A stretch of 64,000 bases of DNA from a bacterium. GTDB taxonomy: Bacteria; Bacteroidota; Ignavibacteria; Kapaibacteriales; UBA7675. Location of the stretch: positions 1 through 64,000 of the forward strand of contig JAUIKM010000023.1 in NCBI GenBank assembly GCA_030430495.1, read 5' to 3'. The translations under genes were made by a program, and so were the position numbers. The notes under the pieces are model-generated. The model made no database searches, was not told the DNA's origin, and saw only the letters and a list, made by a program, of their open reading frames with translations. This document shows, one piece after another, positions 31,995 to 44,615 of this stretch (the stretch's first letter is position 1; every line of letters starts with the position of its first letter).

Positions 31995-32993
31995 CTAGTG
32001 CGGCAGCTCTTCCAAAGCTTTCTCGTAGTCTTTTGTATCGCGTCCCAGTTTGCGCAGCTGCTCAATGCTGTTGCGCAAGATGTCCTCGGTTGCATCGCGG
32101 TTGGCGCTCGTGGCATTCAGCAGGGCCAGGTCGGCCGTGCATTGAACTTCGAGTGCGCGCAGGCCGTGTTCCACCGCCAGATCGTGGGCGCGTTCGTACT
32201 GCGTCGCGGCCGCGCCCACGTCGCCCAGATGTGCGTAGACGCCGCCCAGGCGGTGCGCCGTCGTGGCTTCGCGCGCGGCGTCGCCCTGCTGGTGGTGGCG
32301 CTGCAGTTCTTCGCGCAGGCTGGCCGCGGCCATGCGCAGTTGTTTTTCCAGTCGTTCGGTGACGCGCGTACGGCCTTCCACCGTATTGCTGTTGGGCGTC
32401 TCACTGTCGCTGCGGATCTCCACCGACTGGCTGTCCGGGGCGTCGGCCGCACTGCCGGACTGCGGCATGGCCTGATCCGACGTGCGCGCCGGACCGGGAT
32501 TAAATCCGTCGATCGTGCCGGCGTGTTCCACGTCGCGTTCGATCGTGCCGTAGTCCTGTGCGCGGTCGTTGTGCGATTGGTCCGGCGGGAAGTTGAGTTC
32601 GATTGTGGGTGTTGGTACGGCGGTGAGTGCGGCTTCCGGCGCGGGTGGGGTGTCGATTACAGCCGTGTTGTCGCCGGCGAACCACAGGAGCGCCGCGACG
32701 GTCAGCAGGATGACGGCTCCGCCGGCAATCCATGCGGTTTTGACGCCCGCGGCCTTGCCGGCGGCGGCGCCGGACTGGCTCTGGATGTTCTGCAGGACGC
32801 GCGTGCGGAAATCCGCGCTGGCGCTGTGCGACAGTTCGGCGCGTTCGGTCAGCAGGTTTTCGACCTGTTGCAGCTCGCGAACTTCCTCTGCAAGGCTCGA
32901 ATCCTGCGCCAGCAGTTGCTCGAGTCGCAGGCGGTCAGCTTCGCTGAGGGCGCCGTCCAGCAGTTGTACAAGTAGTTCTTCGCTCTGGCTCAT
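31995..32993 (-). CDS. Membrane anti-sigma factor-like protein with TPR-like tail
   Basis: The 332-residue protein starts with a helical zinc-less anti-sigma-like domain (LLVQLLDGALSEADRLRLEQ, with LAEEVRELQQVENLL), then one membrane helix near 86-106 (WIAGGAVILLTVAALLWFAG). A Pro/Thr/Ser-rich periplasmic linker leads to a helical C-terminal region (about 210-325) with tetratricopeptide-like helices, GGVYAHLGDVGAAATQYERA. Its ATG overlaps the stop of the sigma factor gene (ATGA), a typical sigma/anti-sigma arrangement. It probably holds the ECF sigma factor at the membrane until a periplasmic signal arrives. Confidence 0.78.
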   Translation of the reverse strand: MSQSEELLVQLLDGALSEADRLRLEQLLAQDSSLAEEVRELQQVENLLTERAELSHSASADFRTRVLQNIQSQSGAAAGKAAGVKTAWIAGGAVILLTVAALLWFAGDNTAVIDTPPAPEAALTAVPTPTIELNFPPDQSHNDRAQDYGTIERDVEHAGTIDGFNPGPARTSDQAMPQSGSAADAPDSQSVEIRSDSETPNSNTVEGRTRVTERLEKQLRMAAASLREELQRHHQQGDAAREATTAHRLGGVYAHLGDVGAAATQYERAHDLAVEHGLRALEVQCTADLALLNATSANRDATEDILRNSIEQLRKLGRDTKDYEKALEELPH

Positions 32994-33556
32994 GTTGTTT
33001 CTTGCATATATGGTTGCAATGTTTTGCGGAGGAGCTTTTTGGCCCTGAAGATGCGCACCTTGACCAATGAGAGGCTGATGTTCATCATTTCGGCTATTTC
33101 GTCGTAGGAAAAGCCGCTCAGGTACTTGTATTCGATCGGGAGCCGGAACTCATCCGGCAGGTTGAGTACCGCCTGATCGAAAGCTTCCCGCAGCAAAAAA
33201 TCATCTCCGGTTTTGTCGGCCGTGTTCGGGATGGATTCGGCCAGTTCATCAACGGGAGTAGTATGCGCGCTGGAGCGTTTGGCCTTCAGGCAAAAGTTGC
33301 GGGCAATCGTAAAGATCCACGCCGCAAAGTTTCCGCCCCGGTATGAATCGCGGCTTTTGTACGCCGTCATCATCGTGGTTTGGTATGCGTCTTCCGCCGC
33401 CTCGCGGTCTTTCAGGACCGTGAGGCAGTACGCAAAAATTCGCCTGTCGTACCGCCGGTAAATCTCTTCGAAGGCCCGCTCGTCGTTGTTCCGCACCATT
33501 GCGAACACATCATCATCGCTGAGCGCTTCGAGTGACTCACGATTTGTTTTGCTCAT
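32990..33556 (-). CDS. ECF-type RNA polymerase sigma factor
   Basis: This sigma-70 ECF protein has region 2 (FEEIYRRYDRRIFAYCLTVL, then EAAEDAYQTTMMTAYKS and FAAWIFTIARN) and region 4 (LPDEFRLPIEYKYLSGFSYD, then EIAEMMNISLSLVKVRIFRA). ATG at 33556 gives 188 residues and a normal N-terminus; an in-frame ATG 17 codons upstream at 33607 is possible. The anti-sigma partner overlaps downstream. The regulon is unknown; autoregulation from the 33.6-33.8 kb upstream region is likely but not shown. Confidence 0.9.
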   Translation of the reverse strand: MSKTNRESLEALSDDDVFAMVRNNDERAFEEIYRRYDRRIFAYCLTVLKDREAAEDAYQTTMMTAYKSRDSYRGGNFAAWIFTIARNFCLKAKRSSAHTTPVDELAESIPNTADKTGDDFLLREAFDQAVLNLPDEFRLPIEYKYLSGFSYDEIAEMMNISLSLVKVRIFRAKKLLRKTLQPYMQETT

Positions 33557-33607
33557 TTGCTCGAAACAATCCTGCCAACAATGGAATGTTACAGACTGCC
33601 CGCTCAT

Positions 33608-34266: not shown

Positions 34267-34306
34267 ACACGCCGCGTATCATGCTTGATGCGCGGCGTGT
34301 TATTTT
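34267..34306 (+). terminator. Long hairpin with T-rich tail, likely terminator
   Basis: ACACGCCGCG pairs with CGCGGCGTGT, and inside it ATCA pairs with TGAT around a TGCT loop, giving about 14 bp with single unpaired bases. The sequence TATTTT follows. It precedes the membrane protein gene and implies a transcript arriving from the left. Confidence 0.7.
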
Positions 34307-34446
34307 CAGGCCCGGCCAACACCGAAATTGCCCGTACACTTGCTGTAGATTTCAACCGTTACTGTGCCCTGCGCCCGGCGGATGCACCGTCGCGGCGCGG
34401 CGGACGCCTTCCGCCGTCGAATCTTCTTCACGCATTGCACACTTCT

Positions 34447-35304
34447 GTGAACAATATTCGCAGCTATTTGCGAGACTCGGTCGACCGCATCGATTTTGTC
34501 GTCTGGGGACTCGTCATCGTCTTTTTCCAGGTGTCGGCGGCGGTCAACGGCGGCGACGGCCCCATGTCTCTGCTGGCGGCGCTGGGCATCATCGCGGCCA
34601 TGCTGCTTATCAGCACTTCGATCGAGGTGTTGATCGGCACGATGCGCAACATGCCGGGCATCGGCACGCTGATCGGCTTTATCACGAACGGCCCGGAAGC
34701 GCTGGTGCTGCTGATCGGCCTGCTGGACAACGACATCATTTTTGCCTCGTCGACGCCATTGGGTTCCAACCCGATGAACGTCCTGCTGTTTTTCCTGGCG
34801 ACGACGCTGACGGGGACGGTGGCGGTGGTCTGGGCGCGCAGGATCGTGTACCGTTATCTCGTTTTTATCGCCACGATAGCAATTGCACTGAGTTTTTACC
34901 TGATTCCGGTTGAGATGTATGGCTCCTGGCTGATGTACTGGCTGATCGGCGTGCTGGCGATTTCTGGCCTCATCTTTGCGACGCGCCCCGCCGAGGAGTT
35001 GCCGGAGGACGACGTGGCGCTGAGCCGCATCTGGATGCTGCCGGCGCTGGCGGTGCTGGTCGGCGCGGGCGTACTGCTGGATTTTGTCGTGACGATGGCT
35101 TCGGACGTGTCGATGGCGCCGAAAGGCGTGATCGGTTTTATCGTGCTTTCGACGATGACGTCCTGGCCCGAGTTCAAATCGACGCTGTCGCTGCTGCGCA
35201 AGGACATGCCGCTGGCGGCTTTTTTGAACATTCTGGTCAGCAACATCACCAACTTGTGGCTGGCCTGTCTCGGCGTACTGATTTACTGGCTGCTGTCATT
35301 CTGA
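34447..35304 (+). CDS. Divergent sodium/calcium exchanger-like membrane protein
   Basis: The protein (285 residues from the chosen start) has about ten hydrophobic segments and two related motif regions like the alpha repeats of the cation/calcium antiporter superfamily: FITNGPEALVLLIGLLDN with PLGSNPMNVLLF, and TMTSWPEFKSTLSLLRKD with NILVSNITNLWLAC. Each has an acidic residue after Pro and an SN pair, as in YrbG-type exchangers. Start choice is uncertain: no ATG fits, and the GTG at 34447 begins VNNIRSYLRDSVDR; the frame is open to 34285 but that part lies in the hairpin. It may export calcium or sodium. Confidence 0.7.
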   Translation: MNNIRSYLRDSVDRIDFVVWGLVIVFFQVSAAVNGGDGPMSLLAALGIIAAMLLISTSIEVLIGTMRNMPGIGTLIGFITNGPEALVLLIGLLDNDIIFASSTPLGSNPMNVLLFFLATTLTGTVAVVWARRIVYRYLVFIATIAIALSFYLIPVEMYGSWLMYWLIGVLAISGLIFATRPAEELPEDDVALSRIWMLPALAVLVGAGVLLDFVVTMASDVSMAPKGVIGFIVLSTMTSWPEFKSTLSLLRKDMPLAAFLNILVSNITNLWLACLGVLIYWLLSF

Positions 35305-35934: not shown

Positions 35935-36690
35935 ATGGACCAGTTGCTGGATGCCGCACTCAGCGCAGTTAACATACCTTTTACGGTATTGTTTGTCCTG
36001 GTGCTGTTATATTGGATCACCGTCATTATTGGTCTGCTCGATTTCGACTCGCTCGATGTGGACGTGCACGCCGATGCGGACTTCGATTTTGACGCCGATC
36101 TGGATGTCGATGCCGATATCGACGTCGACGCGGACCTCCACCTGGACGCCGATACACATGTTGAAGTCGGCAATGCCGAAATAGTCGGCGCGCATGCCGA
36201 CGGCGCCGCGACGGACATCGGCGGCGACCACGGCGGAATGTTAAACTCGCTGCTGCTCTTTGCCAACCTCGGTTATATCCCTTTCATGATTGTGTTTTCC
36301 TTTATGGTTCTGTTCCTCTGGACCGGCGCCATACTGTTAAACTATTACTTTAATCCCGATCTGGGCCTCGGCATGGCGGCGCTCCTGTTTGTGCCGAATT
36401 TCGTCGTCAGTTTTACTGCGATGAAGTTGATTACCTGGCCCCTCAAAAAACTGTTTTATCACATGCGCCGCGAAGAGCGCGAGATCGAATCCGTCGTAGG
36501 CCGCATCTGCGTGCTCACGATGGACGCCAGCCCGGAGCGCCTTTCCCAGGCCACGGTGGCGCGCAGCGGCGTACCGCATTTGTTAAACGTCCGCCCGGTT
36601 GGCGACGACACGATTCTGCGCGGCAGCAAAGCCGTCGTGGTATCCTACATCGAAAACGAGAGCGTGTACCTCGTTCAACCCGTGGACTGA
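35935..36690 (+). CDS. YqiJ-like membrane protein with OB-fold domain, flotillin partner
   Basis: The 251-residue protein has an N-terminal membrane helix (FTVLFVLVLLYWITVIIGLL), then an alternating Asp stretch near 42-75 (VDVHADADFDFDADLDVD and more), two or three further membrane helices (VLFLWTGAILLNYYF and others), and a C-terminal soluble domain of about 70 residues starting at VVGRICVLTMDASPERLSQA. This combination is that of the YqiJ/DUF1449 family, OB-fold proteins related to NfeD that are encoded next to flotillins (E. coli yqiJ-yqiK). It heads a four-gene block with an SPFH protein, a flotillin and a large ATPase. It probably works with the flotillin at the inner membrane. Confidence 0.83.
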   Translation: MDQLLDAALSAVNIPFTVLFVLVLLYWITVIIGLLDFDSLDVDVHADADFDFDADLDVDADIDVDADLHLDADTHVEVGNAEIVGAHADGAATDIGGDHGGMLNSLLLFANLGYIPFMIVFSFMVLFLWTGAILLNYYFNPDLGLGMAALLFVPNFVVSFTAMKLITWPLKKLFYHMRREEREIESVVGRICVLTMDASPERLSQATVARSGVPHLLNVRPVGDDTILRGSKAVVVSYIENESVYLVQPVD

Positions 36691-36783
36691 TTCCCCCCAG
36701 CGACAACTGAATTTGTGTTTAATCTGCGCGCTTCGCGGCGGAAGAGTTAACGCTGTCATCGCGCGGCATTAAAGGGAATGCCT

Positions 36784-37452
36784 ATGTTCTCCGGCGTCCT
36801 GGTACTGTTGGGACTTGCACTCGTGCCGCTTAACTTCTTCATCATATCCATGTTTGCCCTTCGCAAGCCGCCGGCGGGTTTTGCCCTGGTGCGCAGCGGC
36901 TTTGGCGGCATGCACGTCGCTTTCTCCGGGATATTTGTCTTTCCACTGCTGCACCGCGCCGACCTTGTGGATCTGCGCGTTAAAACCGTCGACGTTGAGC
37001 TGGCCGGTCCCGATGCCGTGGTGTTTAAGGACGGCGTGCGCGCCGACATTTTACTGCGGATGCAACTGCGAGTTAACCACACTGCCGAATCGGTTGTACA
37101 GGCGTTTGGCGCCTGGGGCGGCGGCGACGCGTTTGACGAAGGAAAATTTCAGCGTGCCAAATTTGCGCAGTTCGCCGCAGCTATTCGTTTAGCTGTCAGC
37201 ATGCTCGAAATTTCAGAAGTTGCCGGCATGGAATTCAAAGACATGATCTTAACGATGGTCGGCGCTGATCTGAACGGATTTGTACTCGAAGATCTTAACG
37301 TCGTGCAGTGCCGCAAAAACACGTCGATCTTTGCCGAACACGGTTTTGACCTGGAATACCGGGAAGGCCTTCTTGTTTGGCACGGAGTCAGAAACGTCGA
37401 GGTCTTAAACAGCGACGAGCCGAACAGCGTCGTGCTCAAAGCGCATGTTTAA
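36784..37452 (+). CDS. Truncated SPFH-domain protein lacking the flotillin coiled coil
   Basis: The 222-residue protein has an N-terminal membrane segment (GVLVLLGLALVPLNFFIISM) and an SPFH/Band 7-like domain: VRSGFGGMHVAFSGIFVFPL, DGVRADILLRMQLRVNHT, DLNGFVLEDLNVVQ. These align residue by residue with the flotillin encoded just after it (VRTGLGGVKVAFDGAMVVPA, DNIRADIKVAFFVRVNQT, DLNGYVLEDAAIDY). It lacks the long coiled coil. Two starts are close: ATG at 36778 and at 36784; the latter sits better behind AAAGGGA. It may be a regulatory or capping partner of the flotillin; this is inference. Confidence 0.8.
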   Translation: MFSGVLVLLGLALVPLNFFIISMFALRKPPAGFALVRSGFGGMHVAFSGIFVFPLLHRADLVDLRVKTVDVELAGPDAVVFKDGVRADILLRMQLRVNHTAESVVQAFGAWGGGDAFDEGKFQRAKFAQFAAAIRLAVSMLEISEVAGMEFKDMILTMVGADLNGFVLEDLNVVQCRKNTSIFAEHGFDLEYREGLLVWHGVRNVEVLNSDEPNSVVLKAHV

Positions 37453-37540
37453 GTCTTTGAACGCCCTGGTGCGAGCGGGTGAGAAATGAAAATTTTGAAC
37501 TTGAAATACAACATTTAATCATCATTGAGTGAGAGTGACA

Positions 37541-39526
37541 ATGCCTGATTTAGTGGTACTGATTTTGATTGTCGTCGGCAGCATTTTCTCGTTCGGCATT
37601 CTGGCTTTTATCATCAGAATGTACAAGAAAGTCGAGCAGGGGAAAGCCCTCGTGCGAACCGGACTCGGCGGAGTGAAAGTGGCATTTGACGGCGCAATGG
37701 TTGTCCCCGCCTTGCACCGCATGGAACTGATGGACATCTCCGTTAAACGCATTGAGATTTCACGCCTCGGCAAAGCCGGCCTCGTCTGTAAGGACAACAT
37801 TCGCGCCGACATCAAAGTGGCGTTTTTTGTGCGCGTTAATCAGACCGTCGACTCCGTTAAAACAGTTGCATCATCCCTTGGCTGCCAACGCGCCTCCGAA
37901 CAGGATGCGTTGATTGAATTGTTTGACGCCAAGTTCTCCGAAGCGCTTAAAACCGTCGGCAAGAAGTTTAACTTTGAAGAGCTCTACGAGGCGAGGCGCG
38001 AGTTTAAAGAGAAGATTGTGGACATCATCGCCACCGACCTCAACGGTTACGTGCTCGAAGATGCGGCGATCGACTACCTCGAGCAGACGCCGCTGCACGA
38101 GCTTTCGCCCGACAACATCCTGGATGCGGACGGTATCAAGAAGATCACCGACCGCACCGCCGCCGAAAACATGCTGACAAACAATATTCGGCGTGAAGAA
38201 GAAAAAGTCATCAAGAAACAGGACGTCGAAGCGCGCGAAGCCATCCTGCAGATGGAGCGACAACTGGCCGAAACCGAGCAGCGCCAGCAAAAGGAAATTG
38301 CCGCAATCACCGCGCGTGAAAAGTCCGAAGCCGATCAGGTTAAGTACCAGGAAAACCTCAAAGCCGAACAGGCGCGTGTTCGCGCCGAAGAAGAGATACG
38401 CGTCGCCGAAGAAAACCGCGATCGCCAGGTCATTGTCGCCTCGCGCGCCAAAGAACGCACCGACGCCGTTGAGTCCGAACGCGTTGAGAAAGATCGTCTG
38501 CTCGAGAGAACCGAGAAGGAAAAGATCGTCAGCCTGGCCGAAATCGAAAAACAACGCGCTGTTGAAGAAGAGCGCAAAAACATCCAGGAAGTCATCCGCC
38601 AGCGCGTGATGGTTGAAAAAGCCGTGGTCGAAGAAGAAGAGCGCATCAAAGACACGCGCGCCAAAGCCGCCGCCGACCGCGAAAAACTCGTCGCCGTCAC
38701 CAAAGCGCAGGAAGTCGCCGAGGAAGCCAAAATCAGTGAAGTCGTCGCCGCCGAAGCTGCACGCGAAGCCGCGCGCTTAAACGCCGAGCGCAAAGTCATC
38801 GACGCCGACGCCGATCGCACAACCGCCGAGAAACGCGCCGAAGCGATGAAGACAATTGCCGATGCCCGCGCCGAAGAAGAAGCCGTGCTCGGCCTCTCCG
38901 AGGTTCGCGTGATGGAGGCGCGCGCGCTGGCCATCGAGAAAGAAGGCGGCGCTGAAGCGCGCGTCATCGAACTCAAAGCCGGTTCGGAAGCAAAGGGCAT
39001 TCGCGAAAAAGCCGAAGCCATGAAGGAATTCGACGGCGTCGGCCGCGAACACGAAGAGTTTAAACTGCGACTTAACAAAGAGAAAGAAGTCGAACTGGCC
39101 GGCATCAATGTTAACCGGGATATCGCGCTGTCTCAGGCCGAAATTATCCGCGACGCGCTCGGCTCCGCCAAAATCGACATCATCGGCGGCGAGACGATGT
39201 TCTTCGAAAACATCGTCAACGCCGCCTCCCGCGGCAAGGCGCTCGACCGCATGGTCGACAACAGCAGCGTGCTGCAGGACCTGCGCAAAGGCATCCTGGG
39301 CGAGGGCGGCGGCAACATCGCCTCCGGCATTCGCGGCATCATGGACCGCCTGGGCGTCAACTGGGAAGACGTGAAAAACATCAGCGTCTCCGCCCTGCTG
39401 ACGCAACTGATGACGCGCGCCGACGGCGAAACACACAGCATGCTCAGCGACTGGTTTAACACCGTCAAGGGCACGCCGCTGGCAGACCAGCGGGTCTCCA
39501 GCGTCATGGCGCAGCTGCGCTCCTGA
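37541..39526 (+). CDS. Flotillin-like protein (YqiK type)
   Basis: This 661-residue protein has an N-terminal membrane segment (LVVLILIVVGSIFSFGILAF), an SPFH domain to about residue 200, and then a long coiled-coil region (about 205-560) rich in Glu, Ala, Lys and Arg, for example KKQDVEAREAILQMERQLAE and KAEAMKEFDGVGREHEEFKL. A C-terminal segment follows (GGETMFFENIVNAASRGKAL). Flotillins scaffold membrane microdomains; YqiK types pair with YqiJ proteins, as here. ATG at 37541 is preferred to a GTG four codons upstream. The gene is 88 bp after the short SPFH gene and 115 bp before the big ATPase gene. Confidence 0.9.
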   Translation: MPDLVVLILIVVGSIFSFGILAFIIRMYKKVEQGKALVRTGLGGVKVAFDGAMVVPALHRMELMDISVKRIEISRLGKAGLVCKDNIRADIKVAFFVRVNQTVDSVKTVASSLGCQRASEQDALIELFDAKFSEALKTVGKKFNFEELYEARREFKEKIVDIIATDLNGYVLEDAAIDYLEQTPLHELSPDNILDADGIKKITDRTAAENMLTNNIRREEEKVIKKQDVEAREAILQMERQLAETEQRQQKEIAAITAREKSEADQVKYQENLKAEQARVRAEEEIRVAEENRDRQVIVASRAKERTDAVESERVEKDRLLERTEKEKIVSLAEIEKQRAVEEERKNIQEVIRQRVMVEKAVVEEEERIKDTRAKAAADREKLVAVTKAQEVAEEAKISEVVAAEAAREAARLNAERKVIDADADRTTAEKRAEAMKTIADARAEEEAVLGLSEVRVMEARALAIEKEGGAEARVIELKAGSEAKGIREKAEAMKEFDGVGREHEEFKLRLNKEKEVELAGINVNRDIALSQAEIIRDALGSAKIDIIGGETMFFENIVNAASRGKALDRMVDNSSVLQDLRKGILGEGGGNIASGIRGIMDRLGVNWEDVKNISVSALLTQLMTRADGETHSMLSDWFNTVKGTPLADQRVSSVMAQLRS

Positions 39527-39641
39527 TCAGCGCCTGAGCAGACCGACGGACGCCGTCCCGGCCGCGCAATTGAACGCGTGGCGGGCGGCGTCGATTCAAC
39601 TCAAACACCGAATACACTTAACAAGTTGAGCGTGCCCGGAC

Positions 39642-42600
39642 ATGGCGGATACGGAAATACAAGAGGAACAGGCCAATACAAGTGCGGCCAAAGAGGCGGG
39701 GGCGGGGACAAACCGGCTGGACGAAGGCGCGTACGGCCTGATACGCGGGCGCATGCGCGCCGCCGCCGGCGAACTGCTGCGGGATCTGGAACACCTTAAC
39801 AAAGAGCGGCGCGCCGTCTACGGCGCCGTCTCAACCGAACTGCTCGGCAGCGAACGCATCAGTACAATGAACAATTGTGTTCCGCGCGACATGACGCCGA
39901 TCGGTTCGCGTTTTCTCTTCGGTTACAACGTGCACATCGGCCTGCGTTCGGAGACGCAGCTGGAAGACGTCTTTGCCATGTACGAGTGGCGCGATGGTCA
40001 TCTGGTGAGTTCAACCCTCGACTGCATCGACGACCCGCAGTTTAAACGCGAATTCGCGGAACTGTACAAGTACTACAAAAACACGGCCTTCGCCAAATTC
40101 GCGCGGCGCGGCGTCTACCTGTACATGAAGTTCCGCATCGGCTCCAGCGTCGACGACTTCAAGGCGTTCAAGTGGCAGGTCAATGACGACGGCACGCTGA
40201 CGTACATCAACAACCGCGGCGACCTGGAGCTGCACTATCCGCCGCAGCACGAAATTGAGTGGAAGCGCCTCGGGCGCGACGCTCAACGAAGCTCCGGCCA
40301 CGACTACCTCTCGGTCAGCGAAAAACTGTTTATCTCGATCGAAGATGCGGTGCTGACGTTTCGCGTGGAAGACAACACCGACCGGGGCGCGACAATCGCC
40401 GGCGAACCGGTGGCCGAAGCGGAGCAAAAGCTGGACGACATGTCCGTTGAATTTGCCGAGCTGGAGCATTTGATTATTCTGCGCATTCGGCCCTATCGCG
40501 AGGAGAAGCTGCGCTACTACGTGTTTAACGGCAAAACGCAGGAACTTAAACGCGTGGACGGCCTGGCGGAGGCGGCCATTCTGCTGCCGGAGAACCACGG
40601 ACTGATATTCCCGCGCGGCAGTTATTTAAACGACGGAACATTGCAGGAGCTGGACACGCGCCAGGCGGGCATGTTGTTTGAGCGTCGTTATCCCGCGCCC
40701 AACGGCGAGGATTTCCTCTTTGTGTTTTACAACCGCGCGGACGGCGTCTACGTGCTGCTGCAGTACAACCTGATTGAACAGGTGCTGGCTCCGCCGCTGG
40801 TCTGCAACGGTTTTTCGATTTTCGACGACGGGCGTCTGCTCTGCTTTCGCGTTGAAGAACTGGCGCAGAAACACCACATGGTTCAGATCTGGCGCACGCC
40901 GTTTATGGTGGATATGCCTGTCGCCGCGGAGCAAAGCGACTCGCCGCTCCTCAAAATCGGCAACCGCGAAATAGTGCGCTGCATGGCTGAATGCCACGAG
41001 CTTTACGGTTTAACGCAGAAAGAAGAAGTCTACGCCGATCTCTACCTCGACATCACGCGCAAAGGCGGCGATATCCGCGACGCCTATTTCTGGCTGGAGC
41101 AGGTCGAAGCCGGCGGAATCATTAAACACATCGACGGGATCCGCTCGGCCGCGGAGGCCGCGATCGACGAATACGAAAAGCTGCGCGCGGTCAAAGCCGA
41201 CACGGACCAGAAGTTTAACGAATTCCGCAGCCAGGTCGACGAGTTCTTAACCACCTCGGCCGCGCGGCGTCCGGAGTCGATTGAGGAGTTTGTCTCCGCG
41301 TTGGCGCAGGTGCGCGCCCTGCGCGGGCGGGCCGCCGCCGTGGCGGAACTGCCGCACTGTGATCTTGATGCTGTTGAACAGCTGGACGCCGCCATCCGCG
41401 CGCATGGCGAGGAACTGGCGCGCGGCTGTGTGGAGTTTCTGCTGCGCGACGACGCGCTGGACGGTTATCGCGCACGCATCGACGCGCTGGACGGGGATAC
41501 ATCGCAGGCGCGGAAAGCGGCGGACCTGATCGAACCGCTCGCGTCGCTGGACCAGCTCTCGACCGACCTCGAAATGTTAATCGACGTGGTTGTCAACCTC
41601 GAGATCGAAGACAGCACACAGAGCACGCGGATTGTAGAGTCGATTTCTGCGCAGTTCACCGACATCAACCGCGTGCGTGCGGGCATGCGTTCGCGCCGTT
41701 CGGATCTGGCGCGCGGCGAAGGTGAAGCCGAGTTCCGCGCGCAGCTGAATCTTGTACAGCAGAGTCTGTTAAACTATCTGGAACTGGCCGATACGCCCGC
41801 CCGCTGTGACGAATACACGACGAAACTGCTGATCCAGATCGAAGAACTCGAAGCGCGTTTTGCCGACTTCGACGGTTTCCTGGATGAACTGGGCATTAAA
41901 CGCGACGACGTCTACAACGCTTTCGAACAGAAAAAAGTCGCGCTGACGGAGAAGTTAAACAAACGCGCGCTGGCGTTGACGCGCTCGGCCGAACGCATTC
42001 TGGGCGGAATCCGCGAACGCCTCGCGCGCTTCGGAAAAACCGATGAGATTTTTGCCTGGTTTTCGACCGATCAGATGGTCGCCAAGCTGCGCGACATCTC
42101 ACAGACGTTGCGCGAGGAGCTGGGCGACAGCACGCGCGCCGACGACCTCTGGACGCGTTTAAACACGCTGCGCGAAGACGCGCTGCGCAATCTCAAAGAC
42201 GCCGACGAACTATTCGTCGACGGGCCGGATCGCGTTAAATTCGGTCGCCAGGTATTCTCCGTTGTCAGGGACAAACCGCAGCTCAGCCTGGTTGTGCGCG
42301 ACGACGAGCACTATTTCCACGTTGGCGGCACGCAGTATTTTCTGCCGGTCGAGGACGAGGTGTTGCATTCTCTGCGCGCCCTGCGTGAGCAGGAAGTTGC
42401 CTGTGAAAATGCCGATGTCTACCGCGCCGAGTTTCTGGCATTTGAAATCTGGGACGGCGCCGGCGCGGAGGCGCTGCTTGAAGCAGTTGAAGACCGCCCG
42501 ATGGACGAGGCGGCGCTGTCGTTTGTGCGGCGTCACCTTGGCCGCAAGCCGTCGGATGTTTACGTCAAAGGTGTACACGATCACGACGCGGCCCGAATAC

Positions 42601-44615
42601 TGGCGGCACTGTTAAATATCCAGTCGCAGGCAAACCTCTTGGCCTGGCGCAGCGACGTGCGCGCATTGGCGTATTGTTTTTATATGGACCGCGGCCGCAG
42701 CGAATCCATGCAGGCGCTCAACGAACAGATAGAAGCGATGCGCGTTGTGCGTACGCTCTATGAACTGCCGCGCGAGTCCGCATTTGTCGTGAACCGCGTG
42801 CAGTCTGAAATTGCGCGTTACTGCGACGAGTGTGATTTTGTGTTTAATGCCGATCATTGCGCTGCGGCGGAGTATCTTTTTACCGTGTTAACCGACAATA
42901 AAGCGCGCGATGGCGTTGCGGGTTTTGCATTAAACGCACAGGCGCGCGAGGTGGCGGCGTCGTTCCGCGAGGCGATGCGCGTCAGCCCAAAGCCGCACGC
43001 CTTTGAACAGTCCCTGGAAGGCCGCGAATCAGCGGCGCTGCGTCTGCGCATTGCGCACATCTGGTTAAATGCGCGCAATGCGGATGGTGTGTCCTGGACG
43101 GCCGCTATGGACGCCGCACTCCTGTTAAGCCTTCCCGATGGCGCCGAAATCGCTTTCACATTCGGCGAACTGCAAACACAAACGACGCTCGAAGGAATGC
43201 ACGGCGAACACGCCCGCATCAAAGAGCGCGCGCTGCATTTTGACTTCCATGAATTTTTACAGCGTCTGGGACTGTTTGCGGGCCAGGTCTATCCGCGTTA
43301 TCTGCAAATGCAGGAGCGCAAACAGCAGTTGCTGGAGGAGCATCGCCGCGTGCTGCGCCTGGACAAACTGCTGCCGGGCGTGCCGTCCTACTTCGTGCGC
43401 AACCAGCTCCTGACGCGCGTCTACCTGCCGATGATCGGCGAAAACTTTGCGCGCCAGATCGGAACCTCCGGACGCGACACGCGCAGCGACCGCAGCGGCC
43501 TGCTGCTGTTGATCTCGCCGCCGGGTTACGGCAAAACCAGTCTGATCGAATACGTCGCCAAACGCCTTGGCATGCTCTACGTCAAGGTCGACGGACCGGC
43601 GCTGGGGCACGACGTGACTTCGCTGGATCCGGCGACCGCGCCCAACTCCGCCGCGCGCTCCGAATTGCAGAAGTTAAATCAGGCTTTTGCCCTGGGCGAC
43701 AACGTCATGTTGTACATCGACGACATTCAACACTGCAATCCGGAGTTTCTGCAGAAATTTATTCCGCTCTGCGACGCACAGCGGCGCATTGAAGGCGTGT
43801 TTAACGGGGAGGCGCACAGCTTTGACCTGCGCGGGCGTCGTTTTGCGGTGGTCATGGCCGGCAACCCCTACACGGAAAGCGGCTCGGCTTTTGTTATTCC
43901 CGACATGCTGGCGAACCGCGCCGACGTGTTTAATCTGGGCGACATTTCCACCGCCGAGCAGGAAGCCTTTGAGCTCTCCTTTGTTGAAAACTGTTTAACC
44001 TCCAATGCCGCGACGCGGCGCATGGCGCTGACGCATCGCGAGGACGTGCCGGCTTTTGTGCGCTGGGCGCGCAGCAAGTCCCGCGAAGGCCTCGAGTTTA
44101 AAGGCTCGTATTCGTCCGCCGAGATGCAGGACATCGTGAACGTGATCGGCAAACTGATGCGCGTGCGCGATACCGTCCTGGCCGTCAACAACGCCTACAT
44201 CCGCTCGGCGGCGACGGCCGAGGCCTACCGCACCGAGCCGCCTTTCCAATTGCAGGGCTCGTATCGCGACATGAACAAGATCGCCGCCAACGTGCTGGCG
44301 GCGATGACCGCAGAGGAGCTGGATAAACTCGTCGAAAATCACTACGTCAACGAAGCGCAGACACTGGCGGGCGACAGCGAAGCCAATCTCCTGAAATGGC
44401 GTGAAATTGTCGGCGTCATGACCGAACCCGAGCGCAGGCGCTACGAAGACATTAAACGCCGCTTCGGCGATAACCAATTGTTCGGCGGAGCGGGCGACGG
44501 CGATCCGCTGCAGGAAACGATCAGGCAGATTAAACAACTCAATTCCGGCGTGCACGCCATCGCCCGTGCAATCAGCGATTACGCAGGCAACAATGGCAGA
44601 AATTCAGATGAGTGA
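39642..44615 (+). CDS. 1657-residue AAA+ ATPase of the 'DNA repair ATPase' family
   Basis: The N-terminal part (about 1-330) contains YGLIRGRMRAAAGELLRDLE, MNNCVPRDMTPIGSRFLFGY, NVHIGLRSETQLEDVFAMYE and LIILRIRPYREEKLRYYVFN, which I recognise as the start of large proteins labelled 'DNA repair ATPase' in databases. A long helical, partly coiled-coil middle (about 480-850) follows. The C-terminal AAA+ module has Walker A SPPGYGKTS near 1290, Walker B VMLYIDDIQH near 1355 and a sensor-like VVMAGNPYTESGS. The database label is not evidence of a DNA repair role. Its place after a YqiJ-like gene and two SPFH genes suggests a membrane-linked remodelling ATPase. Ribosome site is weak. The gene shows many GTTTAA/GTTAA words. 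Confidence 0.8.
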   Translation: MADTEIQEEQANTSAAKEAGAGTNRLDEGAYGLIRGRMRAAAGELLRDLEHLNKERRAVYGAVSTELLGSERISTMNNCVPRDMTPIGSRFLFGYNVHIGLRSETQLEDVFAMYEWRDGHLVSSTLDCIDDPQFKREFAELYKYYKNTAFAKFARRGVYLYMKFRIGSSVDDFKAFKWQVNDDGTLTYINNRGDLELHYPPQHEIEWKRLGRDAQRSSGHDYLSVSEKLFISIEDAVLTFRVEDNTDRGATIAGEPVAEAEQKLDDMSVEFAELEHLIILRIRPYREEKLRYYVFNGKTQELKRVDGLAEAAILLPENHGLIFPRGSYLNDGTLQELDTRQAGMLFERRYPAPNGEDFLFVFYNRADGVYVLLQYNLIEQVLAPPLVCNGFSIFDDGRLLCFRVEELAQKHHMVQIWRTPFMVDMPVAAEQSDSPLLKIGNREIVRCMAECHELYGLTQKEEVYADLYLDITRKGGDIRDAYFWLEQVEAGGIIKHIDGIRSAAEAAIDEYEKLRAVKADTDQKFNEFRSQVDEFLTTSAARRPESIEEFVSALAQVRALRGRAAAVAELPHCDLDAVEQLDAAIRAHGEELARGCVEFLLRDDALDGYRARIDALDGDTSQARKAADLIEPLASLDQLSTDLEMLIDVVVNLEIEDSTQSTRIVESISAQFTDINRVRAGMRSRRSDLARGEGEAEFRAQLNLVQQSLLNYLELADTPARCDEYTTKLLIQIEELEARFADFDGFLDELGIKRDDVYNAFEQKKVALTEKLNKRALALTRSAERILGGIRERLARFGKTDEIFAWFSTDQMVAKLRDISQTLREELGDSTRADDLWTRLNTLREDALRNLKDADELFVDGPDRVKFGRQVFSVVRDKPQLSLVVRDDEHYFHVGGTQYFLPVEDEVLHSLRALREQEVACENADVYRAEFLAFEIWDGAGAEALLEAVEDRPMDEAALSFVRRHLGRKPSDVYVKGVHDHDAARILAALLNIQSQANLLAWRSDVRALAYCFYMDRGRSESMQALNEQIEAMRVVRTLYELPRESAFVVNRVQSEIARYCDECDFVFNADHCAAAEYLFTVLTDNKARDGVAGFALNAQAREVAASFREAMRVSPKPHAFEQSLEGRESAALRLRIAHIWLNARNADGVSWTAAMDAALLLSLPDGAEIAFTFGELQTQTTLEGMHGEHARIKERALHFDFHEFLQRLGLFAGQVYPRYLQMQERKQQLLEEHRRVLRLDKLLPGVPSYFVRNQLLTRVYLPMIGENFARQIGTSGRDTRSDRSGLLLLISPPGYGKTSLIEYVAKRLGMLYVKVDGPALGHDVTSLDPATAPNSAARSELQKLNQAFALGDNVMLYIDDIQHCNPEFLQKFIPLCDAQRRIEGVFNGEAHSFDLRGRRFAVVMAGNPYTESGSAFVIPDMLANRADVFNLGDISTAEQEAFELSFVENCLTSNAATRRMALTHREDVPAFVRWARSKSREGLEFKGSYSSAEMQDIVNVIGKLMRVRDTVLAVNNAYIRSAATAEAYRTEPPFQLQGSYRDMNKIAANVLAAMTAEELDKLVENHYVNEAQTLAGDSEANLLKWREIVGVMTEPERRRYEDIKRRFGDNQLFGGAGDGDPLQETIRQIKQLNSGVHAIARAISDYAGNNGRNSDE

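What the first reader, a model, noticed from the sequence alone, without database searches (positions are those of the whole stretch)
35935..44615. YqiJ-like + SPFH + flotillin + giant AAA+ ATPase: a membrane-linked system of unknown role
Four genes on one strand pair an OB-fold membrane protein with Asp-rich repeats, a truncated SPFH protein, a full flotillin with a long coiled coil, and a 1657-residue ATPase with a large non-catalytic N-terminus. E. coli yqiJ-yqiK are a known pair; the ATPase family carries only a 'DNA repair' database label. A unit where an AAA+ enzyme serves a flotillin scaffold, for membrane remodelling, stress or phage response, is a reasonable but untested model. The following MOSC gene overlaps the ATPase gene.
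Basis: partly seen in the sequence, partly recalled or inferred. Interest (0 to 1): 0.75.

Follow-up and report, generated by a model that had tools for sequence, protein, structure and literature searches.

The report
Flotillin cage with its own ATPase
Bacteria from many phyla carry a membrane scaffold protein (a flotillin) together with a dedicated giant ATP-driven enzyme; the gene set has been described before, and here the pairing proves close to obligatory, but what the machine does is still untested.

Summary
The window holds a YqiJ-like membrane protein (35935-36690), a short SPFH protein (36778-37452), a flotillin (37529-39526) and a 1657-aa DUF3686 AAA+ ATPase (39642-44615). Of 78 ATPase loci with enough upstream sequence, 76 have the flotillin and 75 the YqiJ-like gene upstream. 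In 392 genomes of the phylum, the same 10 have the ATPase and this flotillin subfamily; the other 382 have neither. In 72,556 plasmids the same 12 records have both.

The operon is not new: Ravi et al. 2024 (PMC11237479) describe it, with CesT/Tir-PspA or 'abbreviated'. Four points are new here. ATPase-linked flotillins share a C-terminal segment missing from YqiK and other flotillins. The AAA+ domain is modelled with a pre-sensor-1 hairpin (MoxR/RuvB-like, not Vps4-like). Ten of 22 genomes with an abbreviated operon have no detectable PspA, so PspA cannot be the universal substrate. Bacteroidota operons have a divergent XRE/S24-like regulator.

Best model: the ATPase docks on the narrow end of the flotillin cage and uses ATP to unload or remodel held membrane proteins. 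The pairing is strongly supported; docking and substrate are inferred.

The parts
35935..36690 (+). YqiJ-like (NfeD2-type) membrane protein, 251 aa: three hydrophobic segments, Asp-rich loop, C-terminal domain expected to be an OB-fold by homology
   Evidence: ORF; TM-like segments 4-40, 102-121, 142-163; profile match to E. coli YqiJ E 4.5e-9; found upstream of the ATPase in 75 of 78 loci
36778..37452 (+). Short SPFH protein, 224 aa: N-terminal hydrophobic segment plus SPFH domain, no coiled coil. Accessory, not core
   Evidence: Band_7 33.1 bits; 38% identity to the adjacent flotillin over 154 aa; comparable short genes only in L039, L060, L080
37529..39526 (+). Flotillin of the ATPase-linked subfamily, 665 aa: N-terminal hydrophobic segment, SPFH domain, long charged helical region, subfamily-specific C-terminal segment (about residues 535-665)
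   Evidence: Band_7 40.2 bits; 50-59% identity to flotillins of ATPase loci in other phyla; C-terminal profile matches only ATPase-linked flotillins
39642..44615 (+). DUF3686 AAA+ ATPase, 1657 aa: beta-propeller-like DUF3686 (about 44-483), long helices with DUF7902 (604-687), helical middle, C-terminal AAA+ (about 1285-1550). Walker A 1292-1299, Walker B Asp1360-Asp1361, sensor-1 Asn1408, pre-sensor-1 hairpin about 1382-1395, candidate Arg finger 1426
   Evidence: models of two halves, mean pLDDT 85.9 and 85.0; Foldseek; motif residues invariant in 88 of 88 sequences; no HExxH and no TM-like segment
44608..45462 (+). MOSC-domain protein, overlapping the ATPase gene by 8 bp from this ATG (the GTG start at 44566 gives 50 bp). 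Neighbour, not part of the system
   Evidence: MOSC and MOSC_N; no MOSC gene found in the other loci examined

Best explanation
This is one machine made of three near-obligate parts: a flotillin that (by homology) builds a cage on the inner face of the membrane, a YqiJ/NfeD-type membrane partner that stabilises it, and a soluble giant AAA+ ATPase dedicated to that flotillin. Most likely the ATPase uses its propeller and helical N-terminus to dock on the C-terminal (narrow, cytoplasmic) end of the cage. It would then use ATP to pull out, unfold or reassemble membrane proteins held there under envelope stress, adding an ATP-driven step to the ATP-independent holding activity shown for FloA-NfeD. 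PspA, CesT and a divergent repressor are lineage-specific additions; in this genome a PspA-CesT pair lies on another contig. Shown here: the genes, their near-obligate coupling, intact catalytic motifs, the flotillin C-terminus as a marker of ATPase linkage, absence of detectable PspA in some genomes. Inferred: cage formation, docking site, substrate, direction of work.
For: Synteny: flotillin on the same strand upstream of the ATPase in 76 of 78 loci, YqiJ-like gene in 75 of 78, over Planctomycetota, Verrucomicrobiota, Bacteroidota, Bacillota, Calditrichota, Fibrobacterota, Thermodesulfobacteriota and others. The genomes of both exceptions carry the flotillin subfamily on another contig. Co-occurrence: identical sets of 10 of 392 genomes and of 12 plasmid records. 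The flotillin C-terminal profile scores 94, 40, 36 and 12 bits in ATPase-linked flotillins of Actinomycetota, Pseudomonadota and Deinococcota, but under 3 bits in YqiK and in the full-length flotillins compared from genomes without the ATPase. In human flotillin the C-terminus forms the narrow end, with a roughly 4 nm opening (PMC11260169). FloA-NfeD holds unfolded proteins without ATP (PMC11222466). Precedent for an AAA+ with an SPFH cage: FtsH-HflK/C (PMC13220708). AAA+ motifs are invariant in 88 of 88. PspA not detected in 10 of 22 genomes with an abbreviated operon.
Against: No physical contact has been tested, and no complex could be modelled with the tools at hand. The flotillin C-terminal signature may only mark subfamily divergence or oligomerisation rather than docking; it is weak in the Pseudomonas plasmid flotillin (12 bits, E 0.0026). 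Genomes in the counts are related (5 genera among the 10), so exact probabilities do not apply. No phenotype for any DUF3686 protein turned up in the papers searched, though the library lacks most subscription journals. The AAA+ clade assignment rests on a predicted hairpin and modest Foldseek scores (best listed TM to target 0.60).
Confidence: 0.5

Rival explanations
1. ESCRT-like model: the AAA+ is a functional Vps4, disassembling PspA (ESCRT-III family) polymers on the membrane, with flotillin and YqiJ as the anchor.
For: CesT_Tir_1 and PspA genes sit directly upstream in 28 of 78 loci, all of them Bacteroidota; this genome has a PspA-CesT pair on contig C7; Ravi et al. propose ESCRT-like remodelling and suggest that abbreviated operons use PspA encoded elsewhere (PMC11237479).
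Against: Of 22 searched genomes with the abbreviated operon, 10 have no PspA match at E 0.001; CesT passes its cut-off in 3. Genomes without a PspA match include the isolates Brevifollis gellanilyticus, Rhodopirellula baltica and Acidaminobacter sp. The AAA+ model has a pre-sensor-1 hairpin, which classical Vps4/p97 AAA domains lack (clade rule from general knowledge), and no MIT domain was found.
Confidence: 0.2
2. The ATPase acts on the flotillin/NfeD scaffold itself: it assembles, opens or recycles the cage, as a scaffold chaperone rather than a client unloader.
For: The only near-invariant partners are flotillin and YqiJ. Closest folds by TM-score to target are the MoxR-type proteins NorQ and CbbQ, which activate specific partner complexes (function from general knowledge).
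Against: Other flotillins and YqiJ-YqiK manage without such an ATPase. Not distinguishable from the best explanation by sequence.
Confidence: 0.2
3. Anti-phage defence system built on a flotillin scaffold and an ATPase.
For: Large ATPase plus membrane protein is a recurrent defence layout (general knowledge); presence in a minority of genomes (10 of 392). Small nuclease-like ORFs (DUF559, GIY-YIG) lie near the ATPase gene in a few Bacteroidota loci.
Against: No PADLOC family beyond a 13.7-bit Walker-A fragment; no copies in phages; the recurrent neighbours are PspA, CesT and a regulator, not defence genes.
Confidence: 0.05
4. The ATPase is a DNA-repair enzyme, as its database label says, and the flotillin association is incidental.
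For: Pfam name of DUF3686 and weak RuvB-like Walker-A matches; RuvB is the top Foldseek hit by E-value.
Against: Near-complete coupling to a membrane scaffold in many phyla. The RuvB similarity covers only the AAA+ core; no DNA-binding domain was found.
Confidence: 0.03

Closest known systems
CesT/Tir-PspA + band-7/flotillin + YqiJ + propeller/coiled-coil AAA+ operon and its 'abbreviated' form (Ravi et al. 2024, PMC11237479)
   Same: Same three core families; abbreviated forms without PspA in the operon are noted there
   Different: The window adds a short SPFH gene; its PspA-CesT pair is on another contig and in the order PspA, CesT. The co-occurrence counts, the flotillin C-terminal signature, the genomes without PspA and the XRE/S24-like regulator are not in the passages of that paper read here
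E. coli YqiJ-YqiK and B. subtilis YuaF-YuaG (SPFH2 flotillin with NfeD2 partner; PMC2636767)
   Same: Flotillin and YqiJ-type partner adjacent
   Different: No ATPase beside E. coli yqiJ-yqiK; YqiK lacks the C-terminal segment (0.4 bits)
FtsH-HflK/C
   Same: AAA+ enzyme functionally tied to an SPFH cage
   Different: FtsH is a membrane-anchored zinc protease; this ATPase has no HExxH and no TM-like segment
FloA-NfeD of Staphylococcus aureus (PMC11222466)
   Same: Flotillin plus NfeD-type partner; a working model for holding unfolded proteins
   Different: No dedicated ATPase; activity reported as ATP-independent
MoxR-type AAA+ (NorQ, CbbQ)
   Same: Predicted AAA+ core with pre-sensor-1 hairpin; among the best structural matches
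   Different: Giant N-terminal propeller and helices; flotillin as the conserved neighbour

Membership tests
Ravi et al. PspA-linked flotillin/YqiJ/AAA+ operon | Flotillin-type band-7 protein, YqiJ/YuaF-type protein and AAA+ ATPase in one cluster | tested here: met
Ravi et al. PspA-linked flotillin/YqiJ/AAA+ operon | AAA+ fused to N-terminal beta-propeller and coiled coil | tested here: met
   predicted model: about 30 strands (66-418) then long helices; Foldseek returns mainly propeller-bearing proteins, with low TM-scores
Ravi et al. PspA-linked flotillin/YqiJ/AAA+ operon | CesT/Tir-PspA dyad in the operon (full form) | tested here: not met
   absent from the window cluster; PspA 165.9 bits and a sub-cut-off CesT (25.4 bits) side by side on contig C7. 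Fits the abbreviated form
SPFH2/p-flotillin | SPFH domain, N-terminal hydrophobic segment, charged helical region, NfeD2/YqiJ neighbour | tested here: met
FtsH-type AAA+ protease | HExxH zinc-protease motif and membrane anchor | tested here: not met
Vps4/ESCRT | Classical AAA domain without pre-sensor-1 hairpin; MIT domain | tested here: not met
   predicted hairpin between alpha3 and beta4, model residues 533-546; no MIT hit. The hairpin is a prediction
MoxR AAA+ | Pre-sensor-1 hairpin and helix-2 insert | tested here: inconclusive
   hairpin modelled; helix-2 insert not evident; NorQ/CbbQ and RuvB both match
MoxR AAA+ | VWA-domain partner protein | not tested
   no VWA-specific search was made
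Known anti-phage defence systems | Match to a curated defence family | tested here: not met
   PADLOC scan of the four proteins: only IetA, 13.7 bits, E 0.0074, 26 residues

The most novel reading that the evidence does not exclude
A further type of SPFH-AAA+ machine, beside FtsH-HflK/C and the mitochondrial prohibitin-AAA protease: a soluble giant AAA+ remodeller that docks on the narrow end of a dedicated flotillin cage and supplies ATP-driven extraction or reassembly of membrane clients, independent of PspA.
Probability: 0.4. Interest if true: 0.8.

Novelty: new member of a known kind. Interest (0 to 1): 0.52.

Why it matters
The function of bacterial flotillins is an open question, and most work treats them as passive scaffolds. 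A near-obligate ATPase partner, found in many phyla including culturable Planctomycetota and Bacteroidota, gives a handle: one gene to delete, one catalytic lysine to mutate and one flotillin segment to remove. It also corrects a misleading 'DNA repair' label, and it limits the published idea that abbreviated operons work with PspA encoded elsewhere, since several such genomes have no detectable PspA.

Tried and rejected
Short SPFH genes as one family: the tree could not place them (three of the four end branches at 10 changes per column), so a single or repeated origin is undecided. Apparent giant ATPase fusion in L040: a run of N, not a fusion. MOSC as a partner: window only. Promoters and terminators: no excess over shuffles (3 vs 2.9 and 16 vs 16.4), so operon limits are not shown that way. 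PDB sequence search with the ATPase profile: only weak Walker-A matches to p97, Rix7 and RuvB, of no use for the clade. PDB search with the flotillin as a single sequence: nothing. Horizontal origin of the window copy: suggested by absence in the same-order genomes sampled and a placement beside Verrucomicrobiota, but on a long branch (1.21), so not claimed.

Full report
What is there. The window lies in a 5.6-Mb draft genome of 80 contigs. It is most likely Bacteroidota: a genome labelled 'same phylum' carries an ATPase 93% identical to that of Hymenobacter metallilatus. Four genes run on the + strand: YqiJ-like, short SPFH, flotillin and DUF3686 ATPase. Pfam confirms two SPFH domains, DUF3686, DUF7902 and AAA. 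The YqiJ-like gene has no Pfam hit, but its family profile matches E. coli YqiJ. Gaps between the genes are 87, 76 and 115 bp.

The refutation test. Adding nine relatives and the window gives 90 loci; 78 of them have enough upstream sequence (at least 3.6 kb). Of these 78, 76 have the flotillin on the same strand and 75 the YqiJ-like gene. In 55 of the 76 the gap between the two ORFs is at most 273 bp. The two exceptions, L059 and L098, lie in genomes that carry this flotillin on another contig, in one case at a contig end. Loci were chosen by ATPase similarity, so the neighbour counts are not circular, but they are weighted to the closest relatives.

Reverse test. In 392 genomes of the phylum, DUF3686 is in 10. 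A profile of the ATPase-linked flotillin finds 17 genomes at E 1e-60 with a clear gap in score: the same 10 genomes at 762 bits or more for the main piece, and 7 others at 212-315 bits. Among plasmids, the ATPase is in 12 records, and the 12 records where the flotillin query is at least 80% covered are those same 12. The other flotillin matches listed score 141 bits or less. Random overlap of this kind would have a probability near 1e-20 if genomes were independent; they are not (5 genera), so this is only an indication.

A flotillin marker. A profile of residues from about 535 onward finds ATPase-linked flotillins of Actinomycetota, Pseudomonadota and Deinococcota (94, 40, 36 and 12 bits). 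It gives under 3 bits for YqiK of E. coli and for the full-length flotillins compared from genomes without the ATPase. In human flotillin this end of the protein forms the narrow end of the cage. Docking of the ATPase there is an inference; subfamily divergence alone would look the same.

The ATPase. Models of residues 1-800 and 850-1657 have mean pLDDT 85.9 and 85.0. The first shows a long helix, about 30 strands and long helices; Foldseek hits are mainly propeller-bearing proteins, with low TM-scores. The second has an AAA+ core with a hairpin between alpha3 and beta4. That is the pre-sensor-1 mark of the RuvB/MoxR side of AAA+ (from general knowledge), and RuvB, NorQ and CbbQ are among the top hits. 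Walker A, Walker B (Asp-Asp), sensor-1 Asn and Arg1426 are invariant in 88 sequences. An Asp-Asp Walker B also occurs in DnaA (from memory), so it does not argue against activity. There is no HExxH and no TM-like segment.

PspA. CesT_Tir_1 and PspA genes are directly upstream in 28 of 78 loci. The window lacks them, but its genome has PspA and a weak CesT match side by side on contig C7. Ravi et al. suggested that abbreviated operons may use PspA encoded elsewhere. I searched 23 genomes picked by hand from loci without a PspA gene: 13 have a PspA match at E 0.001, 10 of these over the family cut-off, and 10 have no match. One of the 23 (L059) lacks the flotillin next to its ATPase and so is not an abbreviated operon; it has a PspA match. 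Leaving it out, 10 of 22 have none. CesT passes in 3. Many of these genomes are metagenome bins and may be incomplete, but the isolates Brevifollis gellanilyticus, Rhodopirellula baltica and Acidaminobacter sp. are among those without a match.

Regulator. In 27 of the 28 loci with CesT-PspA, an XRE-type protein with an S24/LexA-like C-terminus is transcribed divergently, immediately before CesT. In the rows read, the residues where a catalytic Ser would be expected are not Ser, so autocleavage is unlikely; this was judged by eye. The main text of Ravi et al. does not contain the terms XRE, S24 or LexA.

What is known. The operon is published (PMC11237479), so the kind is known. No paper in the held library mentions DUF3686 or PF12458. 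FloA-NfeD holds unfolded proteins without ATP, and FtsH-HflK/C shows that an SPFH cage can house an AAA+ enzyme. These make the preferred mechanism reasonable, not shown.

Verdict.

Noticed in passing
L017:4347-5099 (-) and 26 further Bacteroidota loci: Divergent XRE-type HTH protein with an S24/LexA-like C-terminal domain directly upstream of CesT-PspA-YqiJ-flotillin-ATPase; a likely dedicated regulator that the window lacks.
   Followed up: partly
L016:9308-9739 (-), L018:8658-8945 (+) and a few similar loci: Small endonuclease-type ORFs (DUF559/MTES_1575-like and GIY-YIG) between the flotillin and ATPase genes, same strand; possibly inserted selfish genes.
   Followed up: partly
L029, L031, L037, L048 (ATPase C-termini; three Planctomycetota loci and an unnamed bin): These ATPases carry a C-terminal extension of roughly 100-200 residues with a recurring 'QF.LM..W..P.L'-like motif; function unknown.
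   Followed up: no
L045:989-1693 (-) and two other Bacteroidota loci: PLD-like (PF13091) gene near the operon, as Ravi et al. note for some Proteobacteria.
   Followed up: no
L110 (plasmid pQBR103, Pseudomonas fluorescens SBW25): One plasmid cluster joins YjfI, PspA, rhomboid, DUF2491, DUF350, DUF1190, glutathionylspermidine synthase-like, YqiJ-like, SPFH and the ATPase.
   Followed up: no
window 34285-35304 (+) and 31995-33607 (-): Na/Ca-exchanger-like gene just under its Pfam cut-off upstream of the cluster; what look like an ECF-type sigma factor and anti-sigma gene on the other strand (by eye). Not among the recurrent neighbours.
   Followed up: partly
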